53,807 bases of DNA from Candidatus Borkfalkia faecavium (GTDB lineage: Bacteria; Bacillota; Clostridia; Christensenellales; Borkfalkiaceae), in the NCBI GenBank assembly GCA_019114755.1, contig DXEW01000015.1, positions 1 to 53,807 of the forward strand. Reading direction: 5' to 3'. This document shows, piece after piece, positions 1 through 35,888 of this stretch. Made by a program: the position numbers and the translations under genes. Positions within the stretch are counted from its first letter, which is position 1. Every line of letters starts with the position of its first letter. Under the pieces are notes generated by a model. The model was not told the origin of the DNA. It worked only from the letters and a program-made list of their open reading frames with translations, and made no database searches.

Positions 1-89
1 ATGGCAGACGGCGCACTACGTTTGCCGTATTGCCCGCAGCGCCTGCCGCTCCTCTTCCCAAAAAGTTCTTCGATACTTTTTGGGAGCCC
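1..89 (-). repeat. Inverted copy of a dispersed repeat module
   Basis: The reverse complement of this stretch matches 15773-15867, from the GGGCTCCC edge to the CGTCTGCCAT edge. Both copies begin with a hairpin whose arms differ but still pair: CCCAAAAAGT/ACTTTTTGGG here against CCCGAAAAATC/GATTTTTGGG there. A short reading frame starting at base 1 is similar between copies, but the paired stems fit a structured non-coding repeat better. The copy may continue left of the window. Confidence 0.6.
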
Positions 90-164: not shown

Positions 165-445
165 AAACGCGCAAGATTTCTCCACTCGGTCAGTCGCGGC
201 TGCTCCTTCCCTCGGTCGAAATGACAAGGATGGTATTATTTTAAGAGACCCATTCGACTGCGCGGCTTTGGCTATGCCTCCGCCGCTCCGCTCAGGGTGA
301 AAGGGATAGGGGCGACGCGCGCGGCACGCCCCTTTTGTCATCCTGAGCAAGCGCGGGCACAGCCCGCGCGCGTCGAAGGATCTCTGAAAACTAATATTCT
401 CCTTGTCATCCCGAGCGGTAGTCGAGGGATCTTGTATAGGACGCA
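165..445. repeat. Cluster of dispersed 'catcctgagcg ... gaaggatct' repeats
   Basis: At least four degenerate copies in both orientations of the motif catcctgagc(n)gtcgaaggatctc (about 170-230, 264-305, 339-388, 405-440). The same family is seen at 2376-2455, 14281-14325 and 35448-35815. Intergenic elements of this look are frequent in gut Clostridia. No gene or promoter is evident between 1 and 805 apart from these repeats. Confidence 0.7.
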
Positions 446-475
446 AAAGCTGTTTCGAACACGGCTCTATTCTTG

Positions 476-2375: not shown

Positions 2376-2489
2376 CTGTCATCCTGAGCGAGCGAAGCTC
2401 TTTTTCTGTCATCCTGAGCGAGGGAGCGAAGCGATCGAGTCGAAGGATCTCATTATGAATGGTAAATGTAAAATGTAGAATGTAAAATT
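2376..2489. repeat. Dispersed repeat plus AAAATGT heptamer tract
   Basis: Two 'tgtcatcctgagcgag' copies (about 2378 and 2407) run into the 'gaaggatctc' end, followed at 2460-2489 by a degenerate tract of TAAATGT/AAAATGT heptamers. Similar heptamer tracts occur at 20861, 21266, 34513 and 35840. Confidence 0.6.
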
Positions 2490-2613
2490 GCGGATACATT
2501 AAAACAATTCTCGAAAAAGGCAAAACCGCGCTTTTGCGCCGGCGCACCCAATTTGCCGTAAGGCTTCCGCAGGAAAGGTGAAGCCGCCGCGTTTTATTCC
2601 AAACAAATACTCA

Positions 2614-2645
2614 AAAAAAGGAAAAATCACACTTTTTCCTTTTTT
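2614..2645. terminator. Symmetrical A/T-rich hairpin, possible bidirectional terminator
   Basis: AAAAAAGGAAAAA-TCACAC-TTTTTCCTTTTTT is a 13-bp perfect stem with T runs in both directions. Equivalent hairpins in other copies keep pairing with different bases: ACGGCAAAA/TTTTGCCGT at 15356-15379 and GAGGCAAAA/TTTTGCCTC at 15517-15540. Confidence 0.5.
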
Positions 2646-2673
2646 CCCTTATAAGCATACGGATGGAGGTGAA

Positions 2674-2718
2674 TTTTTTTGCCGTTTATAAAACGTGAGC
2701 CCCTAAACGGCAAAAAAA
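2674..2718. repeat. 15-bp perfect inverted repeat
   Basis: TTTTTTTGCCGTTTA (2674-2688) pairs perfectly with TAAACGGCAAAAAAA (2704-2718) around a 15-base loop. This replaces the much longer segment found at the same place in the second array. Confidence 0.7.
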
Positions 2719-2782
2719 GAGGGGAGAAACCGTTGCAGAGCCGCCAAAGGCGGTGAACAACAGGTTTCCCCCTTAATCTCGA

Positions 2783-2812
2783 CGATTTGTTTTGTCAGCT
2801 CAAAACAAATCG
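2783..2812. repeat. Hairpin with conserved TCAGCT loop
   Basis: CGATTTGTTTTG / CAAAACAAATCG is a 12-bp perfect stem around TCAGCT. The counterpart at 15952-15990 keeps loop and closing pairs but has a different, still paired stem. Confidence 0.7.
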
Positions 2813-2908
2813 TGAGAACAAAATAAATTTTTGCGCGTCCGAAAGCCGCGCCTTTCGGTAAGCGCACTCAATTTGCCGCATACCTGCGGCTTTTGCAGGA
2901 AAGGTGAA

Positions 2909-3060
2909 GGCGGCGCGCGTTAAAAAAGGCGTGCCCCGAAAGGCGCGCCGCCGAGGAAAACTCCGAACAGAAAGCGCGCTATCTGCCGATAGCGCGCTTT
3001 GGTTGGGGTTTTCCTCAAATCACGGCAATTCGCAGCCGCCGTCGCGGCGAGAAGTGCGTG
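2909..3060. repeat. Three-hairpin terminal module, copy A
   Basis: Stem 1: GGCGGCGCGC/GCGCGCCGCC. Stem 2: GAGGAAAAC...GTTTTCCTC enclosing AAAGCGCGCTATC-TGCC-GATAGCGCGCTTT. Stem 3: CACGGCAATTC...GAAGTGCGTG enclosing GCCGC-CGTC-GCGGC. It ends 7 bases beyond the stop codon of the minus-strand gene 3068-3265, so it may also shape that gene's 3' end; on the minus strand a GGCGCGCC/GGCACGCC hairpin is followed by TTTTTT. The partner copy at 16080-16232 shows compensatory changes. Confidence 0.75.
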
Positions 3061-3067
3061 AATCTCT

Positions 3068-3265
3068 TCACTTGCATCCCCCGCACGTCTTGCAGTTGCC
3101 GCTGCAATGGGCGGGCTTGGTGCCGGTGGCGGAAAACATCTTTCCGCTCCAGGCGCGTTCCGCTTTTGCCTTGCAGGCGGGGCAGTAGGCGGGGTCGTCA
3201 AACTTCTGTACCAGTTCTTCAAATTCTTTGCCGCACTGAGGGCAGCGGTATTGCAGGATAGGCAT
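3068..3265 (-). CDS. FmdB-family zinc ribbon protein
   Basis: A 65-residue protein with the FmdB/CxxC_CxxC_SSSS start: PILQYRCPQCGKEFEEL, then CPAC after a short spacer, giving the CxxC...CxxC zinc knuckle. Family members are annotated as putative regulatory proteins, but no biochemical role is established. An extra Cys-rich tail, CSGNCKTCGGCK, follows the ribbon and could hold a second metal. The start lies 3 bases from the stop of the upstream membrane-protein gene, so the two are probably co-transcribed from the promoter at 4206-4234. Confidence 0.85.
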   Translation of the reverse strand: MPILQYRCPQCGKEFEELVQKFDDPAYCPACKAKAERAWSGKMFSATGTKPAHCSGNCKTCGGCK

Positions 3266-3268
3266 GGT

Positions 3269-4066
3269 TTATTTTTCCTCCGTGTATTGCGATTCTTGCG
3301 GCGCGGTGCTTGTGAGTTCTGCGGCGCTTGTGAATTCCGCGGCGTTTGTGAGTTCTGCGGCGCTTTCAATATTCTCTGCGGGCGATGGCTTTTTCCCGAT
3401 GGAAAAATCTTTCATAAACATACAAAAGCCGAGCGAGCGGCGGCTGAGGCGGTGCAGGCCGTAATGCAGCAGAAAGAGGACGGCGCCCGCTAAATTGCAG
3501 ATGATGTCTTCCATGGTGTCGTTGACGGGGATGAACAGTTCGCCCGTCACCGTCTGCACGGGGTCGCCCTGGGCGTTGTTGCCGAGCAGCAGATCGCCCG
3601 CAAATTCAAACACTTCCCATAGGGCGGCGAACATCAGCGACACGCAGAAGCAGAAAAGTGCGATAAGCAGCGGCCGCAGCGCATAGATATCCGCCAGCTT
3701 GCAGGCGAAAAACAGCCCGATCAGGCAGCCGATATAGCCGAAGACGGTGTGCATCGCCAAGTCGTACCACCAGATGTTCTCGTAAAAGCGCATGATCGTC
3801 CCCAAAAAGGAAGCGAAAAAGGCGAACACGGCGAACAGCAGCCACAAGCTGTCGCCGATATAGCGGCGCAGCAGCGGCCCGAGCACGAAGGGCACCAGCC
3901 ACAGGACGGCGTTGCCCAGCACCACGGCGGGGCCCTCTTCCGGCCAGCCCGCCATGCCCTGGCGCACGGCGATGACCGCCATGGCGATAAACAGGGCGGC
4001 GGAGATCAGGTACACCGCCAGCCGCAGAGGCGGGATCTTTTGCAGGATAGATCGGCTTTTATGCAT
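3269..4066 (-). CDS. Polytopic membrane protein, DUF2238/YjdF-like
   Basis: A 265-residue integral membrane protein with about six hydrophobic segments. The motifs WEVFEF and NDTMEDIICNLAGA resemble the acidic/aromatic motifs of DUF2238 (YjdF) membrane proteins, whose function is unknown. The C-terminal cytoplasmic tail contains three copies of a six-residue unit (AAELTN, AAEFTS, AAELTS) encoded by an 18-bp tandem repeat (3312-3365). ATG 4066 is chosen because CAAGGAGAG lies 5 bases upstream; an open frame continues to 4357 but reads through the promoter and the divergent gene region. Confidence 0.75.
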   Translation of the reverse strand: MHKSRSILQKIPPLRLAVYLISAALFIAMAVIAVRQGMAGWPEEGPAVVLGNAVLWLVPFVLGPLLRRYIGDSLWLLFAVFAFFASFLGTIMRFYENIWWYDLAMHTVFGYIGCLIGLFFACKLADIYALRPLLIALFCFCVSLMFAALWEVFEFAGDLLLGNNAQGDPVQTVTGELFIPVNDTMEDIICNLAGAVLFLLHYGLHRLSRRSLGFCMFMKDFSIGKKPSPAENIESAAELTNAAEFTSAAELTSTAPQESQYTEEK

Positions 4067-14280: not shown

Positions 14281-14403
14281 CATCCTTCTCTCCTGTCATC
14301 CTGAGGAGCAACGCGACGAAGGATCTCTGAAAACAAATACTCAAAAAAGGAAAAATCACACTTTTTCCTTTTTTCCCTTATAGGCATCCGGATGGAGGTG
14401 AAT
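14281..14403. repeat. Dispersed repeat plus terminator-like hairpin module
   Basis: A 'gtcatcctgaggagcaacgcgacgaaggatctc' copy is joined to the AAAAAAGGAAAAA/TTTTTCCTTTTTT hairpin and the GGATGGAGGTGAAT tail, the same hairpin and tail as in array A (2605-2674). It lies between two genes on the plus strand. Confidence 0.65.
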
Positions 14404-15339: not shown

Positions 15340-15400
15340 CCGCAATTTACGAAAAACGGCAAAATCACACTTTTGCCGTTGTTCTCTATTGCAAACAATT

Positions 15401-15712
15401 TCTGCGCGTCCGAAAGCCGCGTCTTTCGGTAAGCGCACTCAATTTGCCGCAAACCTGCGGCTTTCGCGGAAAGAGTGAATTTGCGCGGCGTTTTTATTCC
15501 AAACAATACTTAAAACGAGGCAAAATCGCATTTTTGCCTCTTTTCCTTTCACAAACAATCTCTGCGCGTCCGAAAGCTGCGTCTTTCGGTAAGCGCCCTC
15601 AATTTGCCGCAAACCTGCGGCTTTCGCGGAAAGAGTGAATTTGCGCGGCGTTTTTATTCCAAACAATACTTAAAACGAGGCAAAATCGCATTTTTGCCTC
15701 GTTTCCCTTATG
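15401..15712. repeat. Two tandem 160-bp hairpin-rich units
   Basis: TCTGCGCGTCCGAAAG starts at 15401 and again at 15561. Each unit holds CCGAAAG/CTTTCGG, GCCGC/GCGGC and GAGGCAAAA/TTTTGCCTC stems and TTTTTATTCCAAACAATAC. They differ by few bases until about 15700. Single related left modules lie at 2831 and 16011. Confidence 0.85.
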
Positions 15713-15951
15713 AGCATACGGATGGAGGTGAATGCGGCGCGCATAAAAAAAGGCGTGCCCCGAATACAAACAGGGCTCCCGAAAAATCGCAGCGAAGCGA
15801 GATTTTTGGGAAAGAGGAGCGGCAGGCGCAGCGGGCAAGACGGCGAACATGGCGCGCCGTCTGCCATGGCGCCTTGACGCGACGAGCCGCAGAGGGGAGA
15901 AACCGCCGCCAGCACGGCGAAGCCGCGCGCACGGCAGGTTTCCCCCTTCCT

Positions 15952-15990
15952 CACGGAAAATTCTTTTGTCAGCTCAAAAGAATTTTCGTG
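15952..15990. repeat. Hairpin with conserved TCAGCT loop, copy B
   Basis: CACGGAAAATTCTTTTG / CAAAAGAATTTTCGTG with one bulged G and the loop TCAGCT. It follows GGTTTCCCCC as in copy A, but the stem sequence is largely different while pairing is kept. Confidence 0.7.
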
Positions 15991-16079
15991 AATTTAAAAA
16001 CAATTCTCGCGCAAGCAAAACCACGCTTTTGCGCCAGCGCCCTCAATTTGCGCGGAAGCGCTCATGCAGGAAAGGTGAA

Positions 16080-16232
16080 GGCGGTGCGCGTTTTATAATG
16101 GTGTGCCCCCAAATGCGCACCGCCGAGGAAAACTCCGAACAGAAAACGCGCTATCTGCCGATAGCGCGTTTTGGTTGGGGTTTTCCTAAAATCACGGCAA
16201 TTCGCAGCCGCCGTCGCGGCGAGAATTGCGTG
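16080..16232. repeat. Three-hairpin terminal module, copy B
   Basis: Homologous to 2909-3060. Stem 1 is GGCGGTGCGC/GCGCACCGCC (C-G changed to T-A). Stem 2 core is AAAACGCGCTATC-TGCC-GATAGCGCGTTTT (G-C changed to A-T). Stem 3 is CACGGCAATTC/GAATTGCGTG. It ends 10 bases from the glyQS stop codon. Confidence 0.75.
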
Positions 16233-16242
16233 AACAGAGTTC

Positions 16243-17622
16243 CTAGTGTTCCATCGTCTTTTCGATATAGGGAGCGACGGCGTCGATGTCCAGGCGGATC
16301 TGCGCCATGGTGTCGCGGTCGCGCACGGTGACGGTGCCGTTTTCCAGCGTGTCGAAGTCGATGGTGATGCAGAAGGGGGTGCCGATCTCGTCCTGGCGGC
16401 GGTAGCGCTTGCCGATGGAGCCGGCCTCGTCGTAGGTGCACATAAAGCGCTTGGAAAGCTGCTTATACACCTCTTTCGCCTTTTCGGAGAGGTTCTTCTG
16501 CAGGGGCAGCACGGCTGCCTTGTAGGCGGCGAGGGCGGGGTGGAAGTGCATCACGGTGCGCACGTCGCCCCCTTCCAGCTCTTCCTCTTCATACGCCTCG
16601 CACAGCACGGCGAGCATCAGGCGGTCGGCGCCGATGGAGTATTCCACCACATAGGGGATGAACTTTTCGCCCGTCGTCGGGTCGAGGTAGTTCATGTTCT
16701 TGCCCGAATATTCCTGATGGCGGGAAAGGTCGTAGTCGGTGCGGTCGTGGATGCCGTTGAGCTCGGACCAGCCGATGGGGAACAGGTACTGGATGTCGCA
16801 GGCGGACTTGGCGTAGTGCGCCAGCTTATCGTGGTCCTTAAAGCGCAGGTGCTCGGGCTTGAAGCCGAGACCGAGCAAAAAGTTCATGGCGCGGCTCTTG
16901 TATTCTTCGTAATATTCGAGGTCCGTGCCGCCCTTGCAGAACCACTGGTGCTCCATCTGTTCGAACTCGATGGTGCGGAAGATGAAGTTGCCGGGCGTGA
17001 TCTCGTTGCGGAATGCCTTGCCGATCTGGGCGATGCCGAAGGGGATCTTGGCGCGGGTGGTGCGCTGCACGTTCAAAAAGTTGACAAATTCCCCCTGCGC
17101 CGTTTCGGGGCGGAGATAAATTTTGTTCTGGCTCTCGTCCGTCACCCCGCGCGAGGTCTCGAACATGAGGTTGAAGGTGCGGATGGGCGTCCAGTTGTGC
17201 TTGCCGCAGTTGGGGCAAGCCACCTTGTGCTCGGCGATGTACGCCTCCATCTCTTCGTTGGTCATGGTATCGGGGTTGACTTTGCCCTTGGAATGCGCCT
17301 CGATGAGGTTATCGGCGCGGAAGCGCGCCTTGCACTCCTTGCAGTCCATCTTGGGGTCGGTGAAGGAGGCGGTGTGGCCGCTGGCTTCCCATACGCGCGA
17401 ATTCATGAGGATGGCGGCGTCTACGCCGAACGAATTTTCGCTCTCCTGCACGAACTTTCTCCACCAGGCGCGCTTGATGTTGTTTTTGATCTCCACGCCG
17501 ACGGGGCCGTAGTCCCAGGTGTTGCCCATGCCGCCGTAAATTTCGCTGCCGGGGAAGATGATGCCCCGCGTCTTGCACAGGTTGACGATCTTGTCCATCG
17601 TCACCGCATGTTTGTCTGCCAT
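16243..17622 (-). CDS. glyQS: Glycyl-tRNA synthetase, single-chain class II type
   Basis: A 459-residue homodimeric-type glycyl-tRNA synthetase that charges tRNA-Gly. Class II motifs include FPGSEIYGGMGNTWDYGP near the start, the zinc-binding CKEC...CPNC insert, RPETAQGEFVNF, FRNEITPGNFIFRTIEFEQME and, near the C-terminus, PYVVEYSIGADR, with an anticodon-binding domain after it. The length is normal for the family. CGAGG lies just before ATG 17622, with a promoter at 17659-17687. No T-box leader is visible in the short upstream region. Confidence 0.96.
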   Translation of the reverse strand: MADKHAVTMDKIVNLCKTRGIIFPGSEIYGGMGNTWDYGPVGVEIKNNIKRAWWRKFVQESENSFGVDAAILMNSRVWEASGHTASFTDPKMDCKECKARFRADNLIEAHSKGKVNPDTMTNEEMEAYIAEHKVACPNCGKHNWTPIRTFNLMFETSRGVTDESQNKIYLRPETAQGEFVNFLNVQRTTRAKIPFGIAQIGKAFRNEITPGNFIFRTIEFEQMEHQWFCKGGTDLEYYEEYKSRAMNFLLGLGFKPEHLRFKDHDKLAHYAKSACDIQYLFPIGWSELNGIHDRTDYDLSRHQEYSGKNMNYLDPTTGEKFIPYVVEYSIGADRLMLAVLCEAYEEEELEGGDVRTVMHFHPALAAYKAAVLPLQKNLSEKAKEVYKQLSKRFMCTYDEAGSIGKRYRRQDEIGTPFCITIDFDTLENGTVTVRDRDTMAQIRLDIDAVAPYIEKTMEH

Positions 17623-19002: not shown

Positions 19003-19075
19003 GGCGTCTGCCGTTCTGCGCCCGAGGCGGCTTCTGCCGCAGGGCGGTAAAGGATGAAGCGCTGCGGCGGCCGCG

Positions 19076-19192
19076 GGCTTCCCTAATAAAAAAATCGGCG
19101 GCCGTTGGATTCCAAAATAAAAACTGCGGCGCTCGCGGGCTTCCAAAATAAAAAAATCGGCGGCCATGGGCTTCCGAAACAAGAAAAATCGG
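19076..19192. repeat. Four degenerate 30-bp tandem units before fhs
   Basis: Units GGGCTTCC..AATAAAAAAATCGGCGGCC at about 19076, 19106, 19137 and 19168 (the last shortened). The A-rich/ATCGGC pattern also appears at 738-802. Confidence 0.75.
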
Positions 19193-19211: not shown

Positions 19212-20861
19212 ATGTTATCGGATATCGAGATCGCGCACGGCTGTAAGATGCAGGATATCGGCGCGGTGGCGGCAAAGCTGGGCATCGGCGAAGAGCAGCT
19301 GGAGCGCTACGGCAAGTACAAGGCCAAGCTGCCAATCGGCACGGGGGCGCGGAAGGGCAAGCTCGTCCTGGTCACCGCCATCAACCCCACCGCCTCGGGC
19401 GAGGGGAAGACGACGGTATCCATCGGCCTGGCAGACGGCATGGCGCGCCTGGGCAAACAGGTGTGCCTGGCGCTGCGCGAACCCTCTCTCGGCCCCGTGT
19501 TCGGCATCAAGGGGGGCGCCGCGGGCGGCGGCTACGCGCAGGTGGTGCCCATGGAAGAGATCAACCTGCACTTCACGGGCGATCTGCACGCCATCACGGC
19601 GGCGAACAACCTGCTGTGCGCCATGCTCGATAACCACATCTTCCGCGGTAACGCGCTGGATATCGACCCCGCCAAGGTGTATTTCCGCCGCTGTCTCGAC
19701 ATGAACGACAGATCCCTCCGCAACGTCACCATCGGGCAGAAGGGGGAGGGAGTCGAGCGCGAAGAGCACTTCGAGATCACCGCCGCCTGCGAGGTGATGG
19801 CGATCTTGTGCCTTGCCACTTCTCTTCAAGACTTGCAGCGGCGCCTGGGCAATATCATCGTGGGCGAAAACCGCAAAGGCGAATATGTGTACGCGCGCGA
19901 CCTGCACGCGGAGGGCGCCATGTGCGCGCTGTTGAAGGACGCCATCAAGCCCAACCTCGTGCAGACGCTGGAGGGCACCCCCGCCATCGTGCACGGCGGG
20001 CCGTTCGCCAACATCGCCCACGGCTGCAACAGCATCATCGCCACCTATACGGCGCTGTCGCTGGCAGATTGGGTGGTCACGGAGGCGGGCTTCGGCGCCG
20101 ACCTGGGGGCGGAAAAATTCCTCGATACCAAGTGCCGCGTGGCGGGCATCCAGCCCGACTGCATCGTCATCGTCGCCACCGTCAAGGCGCTCAAACTGCA
20201 CGGCGGGGCGGATAAGGCTTCCCTTGCGGAAGAAGACCTGCCCGCGCTGCAGGCGGGCATGCCCAACCTGTATAAACACATCGAAAATATGAAGAACGTC
20301 TACAAAAAGCCGGTCGTCGTGGCCATGAACCGCTTTGCCGGCGACACCCCCGCCGAGATCGAGGCGGTGATGCGCGGCGTGCGCGAAGCGGGCGCGGAAG
20401 TCGTGTTTACAGACGTGTTCCTGCAGGGCGGCAAGGGGGGCGAAGCGCTTGCCGAGGCGGTGTGCAAAGCCGCCATGCAAAAGAGCGAACTGCACTATTC
20501 TTACGACCTGAACGATCCTATCCGCAAAAAGATCGAAGACATCGTCAAAAACGTCTACGGCGGCAGCGGGGTCGAGTTTTCGCCGCTCGCTTCCCAAAAG
20601 ATCGACGAGGCGGAGGCGCGCGGCTACGGAAAGCTGCCCGTCATCATCGCCAAAACGCAGTATTCCCTCTCGGACGACGCCAAACTTCTGTCCCGCCCGC
20701 AGGGCTTTACCGTGCACGTGCGCGACATCATCGTCAAGGGCGGCGCGGAATTCGTGGTGGCGGTGGCAGGGAACATCATGCTGATGCCCGGCCTTGGCAA
20801 AGTGCCCGCTGCCGAGCACATCGGCGTAGACGAGAGCGGAGAAATAGTCGGGCTTTCTTAA
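19212..20861 (+). CDS. fhs: Formate-tetrahydrofolate ligase
   Basis: A 549-residue ATP-dependent formyltetrahydrofolate synthetase of one-carbon metabolism, feeding formate into 10-formyl-THF. Visible are NPTASGEGKTTVSIGLADG (P-loop region), REPSLGPVFGIKGGAAGGGY, FTGDLHAITAANNLL and VVTEAGFGADLGAEKF, all typical of the family. Residue Ala in PTASGEGKT replaces the common PAGEGKT spacing by one residue. GGAGG lies 10 bases before ATG 19212; GTG 19206 is two codons upstream. No other Wood-Ljungdahl genes are in the window, so an acetogenic role cannot be claimed. Confidence 0.95.
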   Translation: MLSDIEIAHGCKMQDIGAVAAKLGIGEEQLERYGKYKAKLPIGTGARKGKLVLVTAINPTASGEGKTTVSIGLADGMARLGKQVCLALREPSLGPVFGIKGGAAGGGYAQVVPMEEINLHFTGDLHAITAANNLLCAMLDNHIFRGNALDIDPAKVYFRRCLDMNDRSLRNVTIGQKGEGVEREEHFEITAACEVMAILCLATSLQDLQRRLGNIIVGENRKGEYVYARDLHAEGAMCALLKDAIKPNLVQTLEGTPAIVHGGPFANIAHGCNSIIATYTALSLADWVVTEAGFGADLGAEKFLDTKCRVAGIQPDCIVIVATVKALKLHGGADKASLAEEDLPALQAGMPNLYKHIENMKNVYKKPVVVAMNRFAGDTPAEIEAVMRGVREAGAEVVFTDVFLQGGKGGEALAEAVCKAAMQKSELHYSYDLNDPIRKKIEDIVKNVYGGSGVEFSPLASQKIDEAEARGYGKLPVIIAKTQYSLSDDAKLLSRPQGFTVHVRDIIVKGGAEFVVAVAGNIMLMPGLGKVPAAEHIGVDESGEIVGLS

Positions 20862-20893
20862 AATGTAAAATGTAAAATGTAAAGTGTAAAATT
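20861..20893. repeat. AAAATGT heptamer tract, left flank of the four-helix gene
   Basis: About four copies of AAAATGT/AAAGTGT begin at the fhs stop codon. The reverse-complement tract lies on the other side of the next gene (21266-21330). Confidence 0.8.
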
Positions 20894-20905
20894 TTGGATA
20901 AGGGA

Positions 20906-21256: not shown

Positions 21257-21265
21257 TTTTTCATT

Positions 21266-21330
21266 CCTCAATTCTACATTTTACATTCTACATTCTACAT
21301 TCAGACTCAATTCTACATTTTATATTTTGA
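21266..21330. repeat. ACATTTT heptamer tract, right flank of the four-helix gene
   Basis: Repeated TCTACATT/TTACATT heptamers, with two CAATTCTACATTTTA segments, in inverted orientation to 20861-20893. Confidence 0.8.
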
Positions 21331-34190: not shown

Positions 34191-34554
34191 ATGTCTACTA
34201 TTCTCCCGTAAAGCGCGGGCTGTCCCGCGCAAAAGTTCCGCCCCTATTATAGCGCATTTTCTGTCGTTTTGTATCGATTTTTCGGGAATATTCTGAATTT
34301 TTTGCGGAAACAGGAAGCAGCCCGCCGTCGCACCTTTCCGCGGGCAAGATCTTTGCCCGCGCAGACAGCCACCCCGCCGGCCGCTTGCAAAGAGACAGCC
34401 GCCCCGCCATGCCCGCCTGCAAAGAGACAGCCGCCCCCTTTCTCCCTGCGGAAGAAAGGGGGCGGCTTCAAAACGGCGATGGCTCTTGCACGAAAAAAAC
34501 GTTCCGCCCACCATTTTACATTCTACATTTTACATTTGTTTCTTTTCGCAGCGG
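34191..34554. other. Intergenic region upstream of feoA: promoter, repeats and a strong hairpin
   Basis: Contains the putative feo -10 (34246-34251), two exact copies of TGCAAAGAGACAGCCGCCCC (34385-34404, 34418-34437), a long hairpin GCCGCCCCCTTTC...GAAAGGGGGCGGC (about 34430-34468) and a TTTTACATT heptamer tract (34513-34537). No gene is supported. Confidence 0.6.
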
Positions 34555-35426: not shown

Positions 35427-35447
35427 CCGCGGAGGCAGCGGTTTTTG

Positions 35448-35876
35448 TTTTCAGAGATCCTTCGACTCGCTTCGCTCGCTCAGGATGACAAGGGGAGGGC
35501 GTCATTTTGTCATTTCGACCGAGCAACGCGAGTGGAGAAATCTTGCGCGCAAGCGTTGTGGTTACGAACGCCTTATGGTTTGACGTCCTAAAAACCTCAT
35601 CCTTGTCACCCTGAGCGGAGCGGCGAATGGATATGAGCCGCGCAGTCGAACGGGTCTCGCACGGAAGCGCATCCGTAAGCTGGGCTTTTGCCGTGTTCTT
35701 CCCTGCTTTTGCGTTCAAGGCAAGATCCCTCGACTGGCGCTCGGGATGACAAGGTTGGTTTTTGTTTTCAGAGATCCTTCGACTCGCTTCGCTCACTCAG
35801 GATGACAGAGACGAGGCAAACATTTTTCAAAGCATCCAAAATTTTACACTTTACATTTTACATTTTACATTTTAAT
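35448..35876. repeat. Cluster of 'gatccttcgactcg...caggatgac' repeats and a heptamer tract
   Basis: Five or so copies of the dispersed repeat in both orientations (about 35453, 35510, 35605, 35722, 35771), two nearly identical over 'gtttttgttttcagagatccttcgactcgcttcgctc', followed by TTTACATT heptamers (35840-35876). No gene is credible between 35359 and 35888. Confidence 0.75.
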
Positions 35877-35888
35877 AAAGCCGCTGCG

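What the first reader, a model, noticed from the sequence alone, without database searches (positions are those of the whole stretch)
2510..3060. Two intergenic mosaic hairpin arrays share modules in the same order
The gene-free stretches at 2510-3060 and 15340-16232 are built from the same modules in the same sequence: left module, A/T hairpin with GGATGGAGGTGAAT tail, a variable segment, GGGGAGAAACC...GGTTTCCCCC block, TCAGCT-loop hairpin, left module, three-hairpin end. Both lie between convergent genes, and a partial copy lies at 14328-14403. The conserved order with variable fillings looks like a composite element (BIME-like or a non-autonomous mobile element) or a structured RNA, and I know no named family that fits.
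Basis: seen in the sequence. Interest (0 to 1): 0.7.

Follow-up and report, generated by a model that had tools for sequence, protein, structure and literature searches.

The report
Mobile hairpin element near stop codons
The two hairpin-rich patches are tandem copies of one roughly 220-base, five-hairpin DNA element that occurs in dozens of copies in this bacterium's genome, often just behind the stop codon of an ordinary gene, and that seems to be mobile although no enzyme that moves it was found.

Summary
Each window array is two tandem copies of one ~215-245-nt unit plus remnants. Read from the neighbouring minus-strand gene the unit is: stop codon, 5-8 nt, hairpins P5, P4, P3, P2, then P1 with a T-rich tail resembling an intrinsic terminator.

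Covariation is strong: in 110 relatives' copies 98.2% of 2,770 stem cells pair; covariation 0.706 against 0.204 shuffled and at most 0.160 slid. P5 lies 0-15 nt after a stop in 46 of 110 relatives' copies; on the P1 side a facing stop lies within 125 nt in 9 of 110. Of 30 species read, 3 carry an intact unit behind glyS (a fourth decayed) and 21 behind asnS. Two species pairs differ by one 223- or 225-nt unit.

Best explanation: a non-autonomous mobile element acting as a portable 3' end. No Y1 transposase, reverse transcriptase or IS110 transposase was found in this genome. Mobiliser and cellular role are unknown.

The parts
3068..3265 (-). FmdB-type zinc-ribbon gene; its TGA (3068-3070) is 5 nt from the first unit
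   Evidence: Pfam PF09723 E 1.4e-12; NCBIfam TIGR02605
2820..3062 (-). Array 1, gene-proximal full unit (A/F/G/H subtype): P5 3019-3062, P4 2954-3018, P3 2908-2953, P2+P1 about 2825-2907, tail to about 2820
   Evidence: nhmmer modules, R1 match 2903-3062 E 1.8e-27, sequence
2601..2819 (-). Array 1, second full unit (B/F/D/E subtype): P5 2776-2819, P4 2720-2775, P3 about 2675-2719, P2+P1 2606-2674, T-rich tail about 2601-2605
   Evidence: R1 match 2668-2818 E 3.6e-31
2505..2600 (-). Array 1, remnant of a further unit (P2-P1 only)
   Evidence: (module A 2520-2581)
16243..17622 (-). glyS, glycine--tRNA ligase; its stop lies 8 nt from array 2
   Evidence: NCBIfam NF003211 E 4e-196
15993..16234 (-). 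Array 2, gene-proximal full unit (A/F/G/H): P5 16191-16234, P4 16126-16187, P3 16081-16123, P2+P1 16003-16078 and tail
   Evidence: R1 match 16074-16234 E 1.7e-29
15659..15992 (-). Array 2, second full unit (B/F/D/E), P3 interrupted by about 127 nt of another small repeat (about 15766-15892)
   Evidence: R1 match 15842-15992 E 2e-20; part of the insert matches window 1-64 inverted (I2)
15340..15658 (-). Array 2, remnants: P1/P2 parts in a 160-bp tandem (15371-15530 / 15531-15690, 92% alike, the second copy overlapping the unit above)
   Evidence: (D4)
14336..14402 (+). Solo P1-P2 fragment; 14331-14403 is 96% identical to 2601-2674

Best explanation
Each array is a head-to-tail stack of copies of one non-autonomous mobile element of about 215-245 nt, whose five stems fold in order P5-P4-P3-P2-P1 when read outward from a gene boundary. 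Shown: the unit, its covarying stems, its high and labile copy number, presence or absence between species at the same gene, two differences of exactly one unit next to a stop codon, and the one-way orientation (P5, not P1, towards stop codons). Inferred: copies are moved in trans by an unidentified enzyme that recognises the folded (single-stranded or cruciform) form and places a new copy at the edge of a coding sequence, so stacks grow by adding a unit between the stop codon and the older units (the two differences could also be losses). Also inferred: in place the unit is transcribed as the gene's 3' UTR, P5 a few nt after the stop codon and P1 with its T-rich tail (about GAGTATTTGTTT) able to end the transcript, so an insertion supplies a portable 3' end; where neighbours are co-directional (asnS and the next gene) it puts a terminator-like block between them.
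For: One unit with subtypes: 46 own-genome units align. Structure: RNAalifold 26 pairs, 23 with both-sided compensatory change; 110 distinct copies from relatives, not used to build the model but aligned to it: 98.2% of cells paired, covariation 0.706 vs 0.204 shuffled and at most 0.160 slid. Abundance and lability: model R1 in 37 of 40 genus genomes, 0 to 76 scored copies, 76 being the cap; zero in G015, G028, G034. Within-genome spread: nearest neighbour in the same genome for 101 of 181 copies (25.2 expected), or 40 of 118 without the own genome (3.5 expected) (219 rows, 193 after dropping loci L122-L129 and lengths outside 105-175 nt, 181 distinct). Site polymorphism: of 30 glyS loci fetched (36 of 40 genomes had a match), 3 have an intact unit after the stop, 1 a decayed one, 26 none there; of 30 asnS loci fetched, 20 by model plus 1 by eye are filled, 9 empty. 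The gap from asnS to the next gene (plsX by a recalled motif) was 146-900 nt in 17 filled species and 46, 99, 106, 109, 142, 234 and 362 nt in 7 empty ones. Single-unit differences: 223 nt, G006 vs G007 at glyS; 225 nt, G007 vs G031. Placement: P5 0-15 nt after a stop in 46 of 110 relatives' and 25 of 68 own copies; a stop facing the P1 side within 125 nt of the model end in 9 of 110 and 2 of 68; median spacer 5 and 7 nt.
Against: No mobilising enzyme found: Y1_Tnp, RVT_1 and IS110 have no match in the own genome (assembly 89.9% complete), and other transposase families were not searched. No terminal inverted repeats seen by eye; a target-site duplication could not be separated from the element's own start (7- and 12-nt overlaps). 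40 of 110 relatives' copies and 29 of 68 own have no gene boundary called within 60 nt of P5 (probably inner units, but not all checked), and 21 and 8 abut a gene start instead of a stop. The terminator scan found none in array 1 (1.3 expected) and 6 in array 2 (2.9 expected), so termination is argued from shape only. Only four of the 109 candidate gap pairs were read base by base. No transcript data.
Confidence: 0.66

Rival explanations
1. A host-functional structured 3'-UTR (or leader) RNA: copies are kept because they regulate or stabilise the mRNA they are attached to, for example by blocking exonucleases or by slowing ribosomes at the stop codon as E. coli REPs do; copy similarity within a genome comes from gene conversion.
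For: P5 often starts within the 15 nt behind the stop codon that matter for E. coli REP stalling (passages of PMC12306157); element at the asnS 3' end in 21 of 30 species read; architecture kept in other genera of the family and in G425 of another family.
Against: Copy number falls to 0 in 3 of 40 genus genomes and is 1-7 in six more; 26 of 30 glyS sites have none; host genes form no evident regulon; 3 of 14 asnS copies listed are closest to another copy of their own genome.
Confidence: 0.2
2. The pairing is kept at DNA level, not by RNA function: quasi-palindrome (template-switch) correction or cruciform/single-strand recognition keeps both arms complementary, so covariation does not show a functional RNA.
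For: Wobble pairs are very rare: 16 of about 2,660 cells apart from one column pair that holds 32; in the 46 own units only 49 of 1,707 cells are G-U on one strand or the other. Neither strand is clearly the folded one: antisense more stable in 29 of 46, gene strand in 13, Wilcoxon p 0.0065.
Against: Unpaired stretches are conserved too (TTCAC invariant, AGGGC..TTATAAA loop), and TTCAC recurs in other genera, which arm correction alone does not predict. Compatible with the mobility part of the best explanation.
Confidence: 0.35
3. A REPIN/BIME moved by a Y1 (IS200/IS605-like, RAYT) transposase encoded elsewhere in the population.
For: Y1_Tnp matches in 23 of 40 genus genomes, among them the high-copy G003, G008 and G025; hairpins at the ends and stacked arrays resemble this class.
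Against: No Y1_Tnp match in the own genome nor in G006, G007, G031 where single-unit differences were seen, nor in high-copy G018 and G039; 3-7 matches in each of the three zero-copy genomes. Copy number against Y1 count: Spearman -0.34, p 0.033; genomes with against without Y1: Mann-Whitney p 0.17, not significant (capped counts).
Confidence: 0.07
4. Unrelated GC-rich terminators or an assembly artefact that look alike by chance.
For: GC-rich genome; units at several contig ends.
Against: Ordered multi-part architecture in 46 own and 110 relatives' copies with covariation.
Confidence: 0.01

Closest known systems
REP / BIME / REPIN elements (enterobacteria, pseudomonads)
   Same: High-copy, intergenic, hairpin-based, stacked in mosaics, non-coding; part of E. 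coli REPs lie within 15 nt of a stop codon (260 of 496 in an earlier study, 446 of 4,072 in RepRanger; passages of PMC12306157)
   Different: Unit is five different stems in fixed order and polarity instead of 20-40-nt palindromes; no Y1/RAYT match in this genome; placement is oriented, distances to the stop peaking at 3-9 nt; the REP tags GTAG/CGTC (passages of PMC3733652) were not searched for
BOX, RUP and SPRITE of Streptococcus pneumoniae
   Same: Modular composite (BOX), strongly folded, expanded in one lineage; SPRITE is terminator-like and over-represented between convergent genes (passages of PMC3049150)
   Different: No BOX, RUP or SPRITE model was run here; BOX varies by boxB number while this varies by whole units and stem swapping; orientation rule towards stop codons not mentioned in the passages seen
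bcr1 and other stem-loop repeat families of Bacillota
   Same: Structured interspersed repeats; bcr1 listed at 167 nt and, in a cited title, as having mobile-element characteristics (passages of PMC2267715)
   Different: Different lineage; fold not compared; no stop-codon rule in the passages seen
MITEs
   Same: Short, non-coding, non-autonomous, multi-copy
   Different: No terminal inverted repeats seen by eye; no clean target duplication; no parent element found (none was searched for by its ends)

Membership tests
REP/BIME/REPIN | RAYT (Y1_Tnp) transposase in the genome or tracking copy number | tested here: not met
   PF01797 no match in G000; 23 of 40 genus genomes have one, Spearman -0.34 with copy number, Mann-Whitney not significant
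REP/BIME/REPIN | 20-40-nt palindrome tagged GTAG or CGTC | tested here: inconclusive
   Units are about 220 nt with five stems, stacked head-to-tail; the tag itself was not searched
REP/BIME/REPIN | High copy, intergenic, mosaic stacks | tested here: met
MITE | Terminal inverted repeats | tested here: inconclusive
   Unit ends GTTCAC and about TATTTGTTT; none seen by eye, no systematic test
MITE | Target-site duplication | tested here: inconclusive
   7- and 12-nt overlaps at two single-unit differences coincide with the unit start
BOX-like modular repeat | Fixed order of distinct modules with strong fold | tested here: met
BOX-like modular repeat | boxA/boxB/boxC sequence | not tested
   No BOX model was run
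Known Rfam RNA | Score above a family's gathering threshold | tested here: not met
   0 matches in the whole window; at the arrays the best are below gathering score, E 0.019 or worse
Intrinsic terminator | GC stem followed by a T-run | tested here: inconclusive
   P1 has a T-rich tail; consensus scan 0 in array 1 (1.3 expected), 6 in array 2 (2.9 expected)
Group II intron or retroelement derivative | Reverse transcriptase available | tested here: not met
   RVT_1 in 4 of 40 genus genomes, not in G000, G006, G007 or G031

The most novel reading that the evidence does not exclude
A previously undescribed class of mobile element that targets the edges of coding sequences, above all the first nucleotides behind stop codons, and installs a complete, self-terminating 3' UTR, spreading to about 75 or more copies per genome without a Y1, reverse-transcriptase or IS110 enzyme of its own genome; it may move by a new enzyme or by copying of its own terminated RNA or of extruded hairpins by host machinery, and it may rewire mRNA ends across a bacterial family.
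Probability: 0.3. Interest if true: 0.82.

Novelty: new variant of a known kind. Interest (0 to 1): 0.62.

Why it matters
If right, these bacteria carry a family of portable 3' ends that occupy the same sites in different species, giving a natural experiment on what happens when a strong hairpin is put within 10 nt of a stop codon and between co-directional genes. It offers a counterpart to REP/BIME elements without the expected Y1 transposase, and a clear target (the stop-codon edge) for finding an unknown mobilising activity. It may also explain some contig breaks and gene-free patches in such assemblies.

Tried and rejected
Y1/RAYT mobilisation, reverse transcriptase, IS110 with structured bridge RNA: none is found in the own genome and none follows copy number; other transposase families were not searched. 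Known RNA families: none. Carriage on phages or plasmids: no match to the first array in the plasmid or phage collections; one P4 pattern gave 0 in viral contigs. The exact pattern in genome contigs gave 2 Bacteroidales contigs, about what chance gives (my estimate, roughly 2); R1 found nothing in the fetched parts of either at E up to 1. Strand of the active fold: not settled. Insertion into native terminators as the targeting rule: hairpins with T-runs are seen by eye at many empty glyS sites, but at asnS the next gene starts 46 nt (G021) and about 10 nt (G034, by eye) after the stop in empty species, so a terminator is not needed. An apparent excess of tRNA-ligase genes in front of units (Gly, Asn, Arg, Tyr among 31 genes) was noticed after the fact and not tested. 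The first control for orientation (33 of 69 against 1 of 69) measured the other end from the end of the model, which stops about 70-90 nt short of the unit end; it was replaced by the wider one. Literature: searches listed no title or abstract describing this element; only passages of PMC12306157, PMC3049150, PMC3733652 and PMC2267715 were read.

Full report
What is there. The stretches 2510-3062 and 15340-16234 are real repeats of each other and match 76 and 98 places, themselves included, in the 1.73-Mb, 38-contig assembly. Two recurrent strings stand out, B-F-D-E and A-F-G/H (or E), nearly always with one polarity within an array. Aligned, they are the same thing: a five-stem unit. A and B are alternative P1+P2 ends, F is P3, D and G (and a third class) are alternative P4, E and H are alternative P5.

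Direction. Read from the gene on the minus strand, array 1 starts 5 nt after the stop of a zinc-ribbon gene (3068-3265) and array 2 starts 8 nt after the stop of glyS (16243-17622). The unit therefore runs P5-P4-P3-P2-P1 away from the gene and ends with P1 and a T-rich tail, about GAGTATTTGTTT.

Placement. In the own genome many P5 ends lie 0-9 nt behind a stop of a gene reading into the unit. P5 lies 0-15 nt after a called stop in 46 of 110 distinct relatives' copies and 25 of 68 own copies. As a control, a stop of a gene facing the P1 side lies within 125 nt of the model end (the unit ends about 70-90 nt beyond it) in 9 of 110 and 2 of 68. An earlier version of this test gave 33 of 69 against 1 of 69 with a control that was too narrow. 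With a 60-nt window P5 abuts a stop in 49, a gene start in 21 and neither in 40 of 110; for 68 own copies 31, 8 and 29. Distances to the stop peak at 3-9 nt (median 5 and 7). Gene calls were made by a simple codon score trained on the window, so small genes are missed (the zinc-ribbon gene was). Gene orientation around arrays is mostly tandem, not convergent (28 tandem, 9 convergent, 2 divergent, 9 edge of 48).

Structure. On 46 own units RNAalifold predicts 26 pairs in P5 and P3, 23 with compensatory double changes. P4 was paired by hand, class by class (18, 20 and 8 units): over P5, P4 and P3, 1,590 of 1,707 cells are Watson-Crick. On 110 distinct copies from relatives, aligned to the model (which leans to the structure), 98.2% of 2,770 cells pair; covariation 0.706 against 0.204 shuffled and at most 0.160 slid. 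Wobble pairs are nearly absent, which is unlike what I would expect of an ordinary RNA helix (recalled, no control obtained) and leaves open that the palindromes are kept as DNA. Strand tests are weak: 41 A-C against 8 G-U cells on the gene strand, but 20 of the 41 are one position; the antisense strand folds better in 29 of 46, the gene strand in 13.

Spread. The covariance model (P5 to P3) finds the element in 37 of 40 genus genomes with 0 to 76 scored copies, 76 being the cap, in 136 of 398 genomes and 5 of 18 genera of the family (7 candidates scored per genome) and in 14 of 396 of the order, two of them, G402 and G425, outside the family. I read 20 distant copies by eye: the P5-P4-P3-TTCAC order holds in those of genera g3 and g4 and in the six of G425; the one of G402 keeps P4, P3 and a TTCAT but no clear P5. 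Only 3 of these 20 have an ORF of more than 150 aa ending within 15 nt of P5; several others stand next to what look like gene starts. By BLAST, 176 of 398 family genomes match the first array (2 candidates scored per genome).

Mobility. Nearest neighbours lie in the same genome for 101 of 181 copies (25.2 expected; 40 of 118 against 3.5 without the own genome; 219 rows, 193 after dropping loci L122-L129 and lengths outside 105-175 nt, 181 distinct). At glyS, 36 of 40 genomes had a match and 30 loci were read: G000, G006 and G007 carry intact units directly after the stop, G022 a decayed one, 26 none there; G023 has parts farther downstream. At asnS, 30 loci were read: 20 by the model and one more by eye are filled, 9 are empty. 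Where the next gene (plsX, by a recalled motif) could be placed, the gap was 146-900 nt in 17 filled species and 46, 99, 106, 109, 142, 234 and 362 nt in 7 empty ones; an eighth empty one (L183) was mis-set by the script and reads about 10 nt, and five loci gave no distance. Comparing loci gave 109 candidate pairs with a gap on one side; of the four read base by base, two are single-unit differences: G006 has 223 nt more than G007 between the glyS stop and a shared unit, and G007 has 225 nt more than G031 behind another gene. If these are gains, new units appear next to the stop, in front of older ones. Short remnants of P5 (GTTCACGAAA...) between stop and unit in several loci suggest that sites are re-used.

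What moves it. Nothing found. Y1_Tnp has no match here or in G006, G007, G018, G029, G031 and G039, yet has 3-7 matches in each of the three zero-copy genomes; it is present in the high-copy G003, G008 and G025. Copy number and Y1 count correlate weakly and negatively (Spearman -0.34, p 0.033); genomes with and without Y1 do not differ significantly (Mann-Whitney p 0.17). Reverse transcriptase is in 4 of 40 and IS110 in 5 of 40, neither here. The assembly is 89.9% complete, so absence here is not proof, and other families were not searched. No match of array 1 in plasmids or phages, and none of one P4 pattern in viral contigs.

What it does. Inference: transcribed as a 3' UTR, it gives the gene a structured end and a terminator-like P1. 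The consensus scan gives little support (array 1: 0 found, 1.3 expected; array 2: 6 found, 2.9 expected). In E. coli, REPs within 15 nt of a stop codon are reported to stall ribosomes and lower translation (passages of PMC12306157); the P5 spacing here falls in that range, so an effect on the upstream gene is plausible and untested. The 31 genes found in front of units are varied housekeeping genes, among them Lon, ObgE, RecR, YchF, H+-pyrophosphatase, RNase E/G and four tRNA ligases, five of them without a Pfam family, which speaks against one regulon.

Comparison. It behaves like REP/BIME/REPIN, BOX/SPRITE or bcr-type repeats, but fails the Y1-transposase feature of REPs, shows no inverted-repeat ends by eye, and matches no Rfam family. 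Literature searches listed nothing that by title or abstract describes it. I file it as a new variant of the known kind 'dispersed, folded, non-autonomous bacterial repeat', with an unusual oriented preference for stop codons.

Noticed in passing
window 15766-15892 and 1-64; L012, L014, L015, L016, L041: A separate small repeat of about 127 nt is nested in P3 of several units and part of it lies inverted at the start of the window.
   Followed up: partly
L010 and L038, inside P2: Insert of about 290 nt with ends AACCAAGCCAAAGCAA / TTGCTTTGGCTTGGTT or near, MITE-like, inside units.
   Followed up: no
window 368-465, 2369-2455, 14312-14340, 35440-35807: Repeats of the type CATCCTGAG...GAAGGATCTCTGAAAA; some sit against the P1 end of units.
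   Followed up: no
window 2458-2504, 20851-20899, 21259-21327, 34508-34537, 35834-35882: Runs of TTTACATTCTACATTTT-like repeats; such runs often lie directly beyond the P1 end of units in the own genome.
   Followed up: no
L171, L181 and other asnS loci: The same intergenic region can hold units in opposite orientation, one with P5 against the asnS stop and others pointing the other way; P5 next to a gene start is seen in 21 of 110 relatives' copies.
   Followed up: partly
own genome, 31 genes in front of units: Four tRNA ligases (Gly, Asn, Arg, Tyr) among 31 genes; looks like an excess but was noticed after the fact.
   Followed up: no
window 19062-19185: 31-nt tandem repeat before the formate--tetrahydrofolate ligase gene.
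   Followed up: no
window 3302-3365: 18-nt tandem repeat inside the C-terminal coding part of the gene 3269-4066(-).
   Followed up: no
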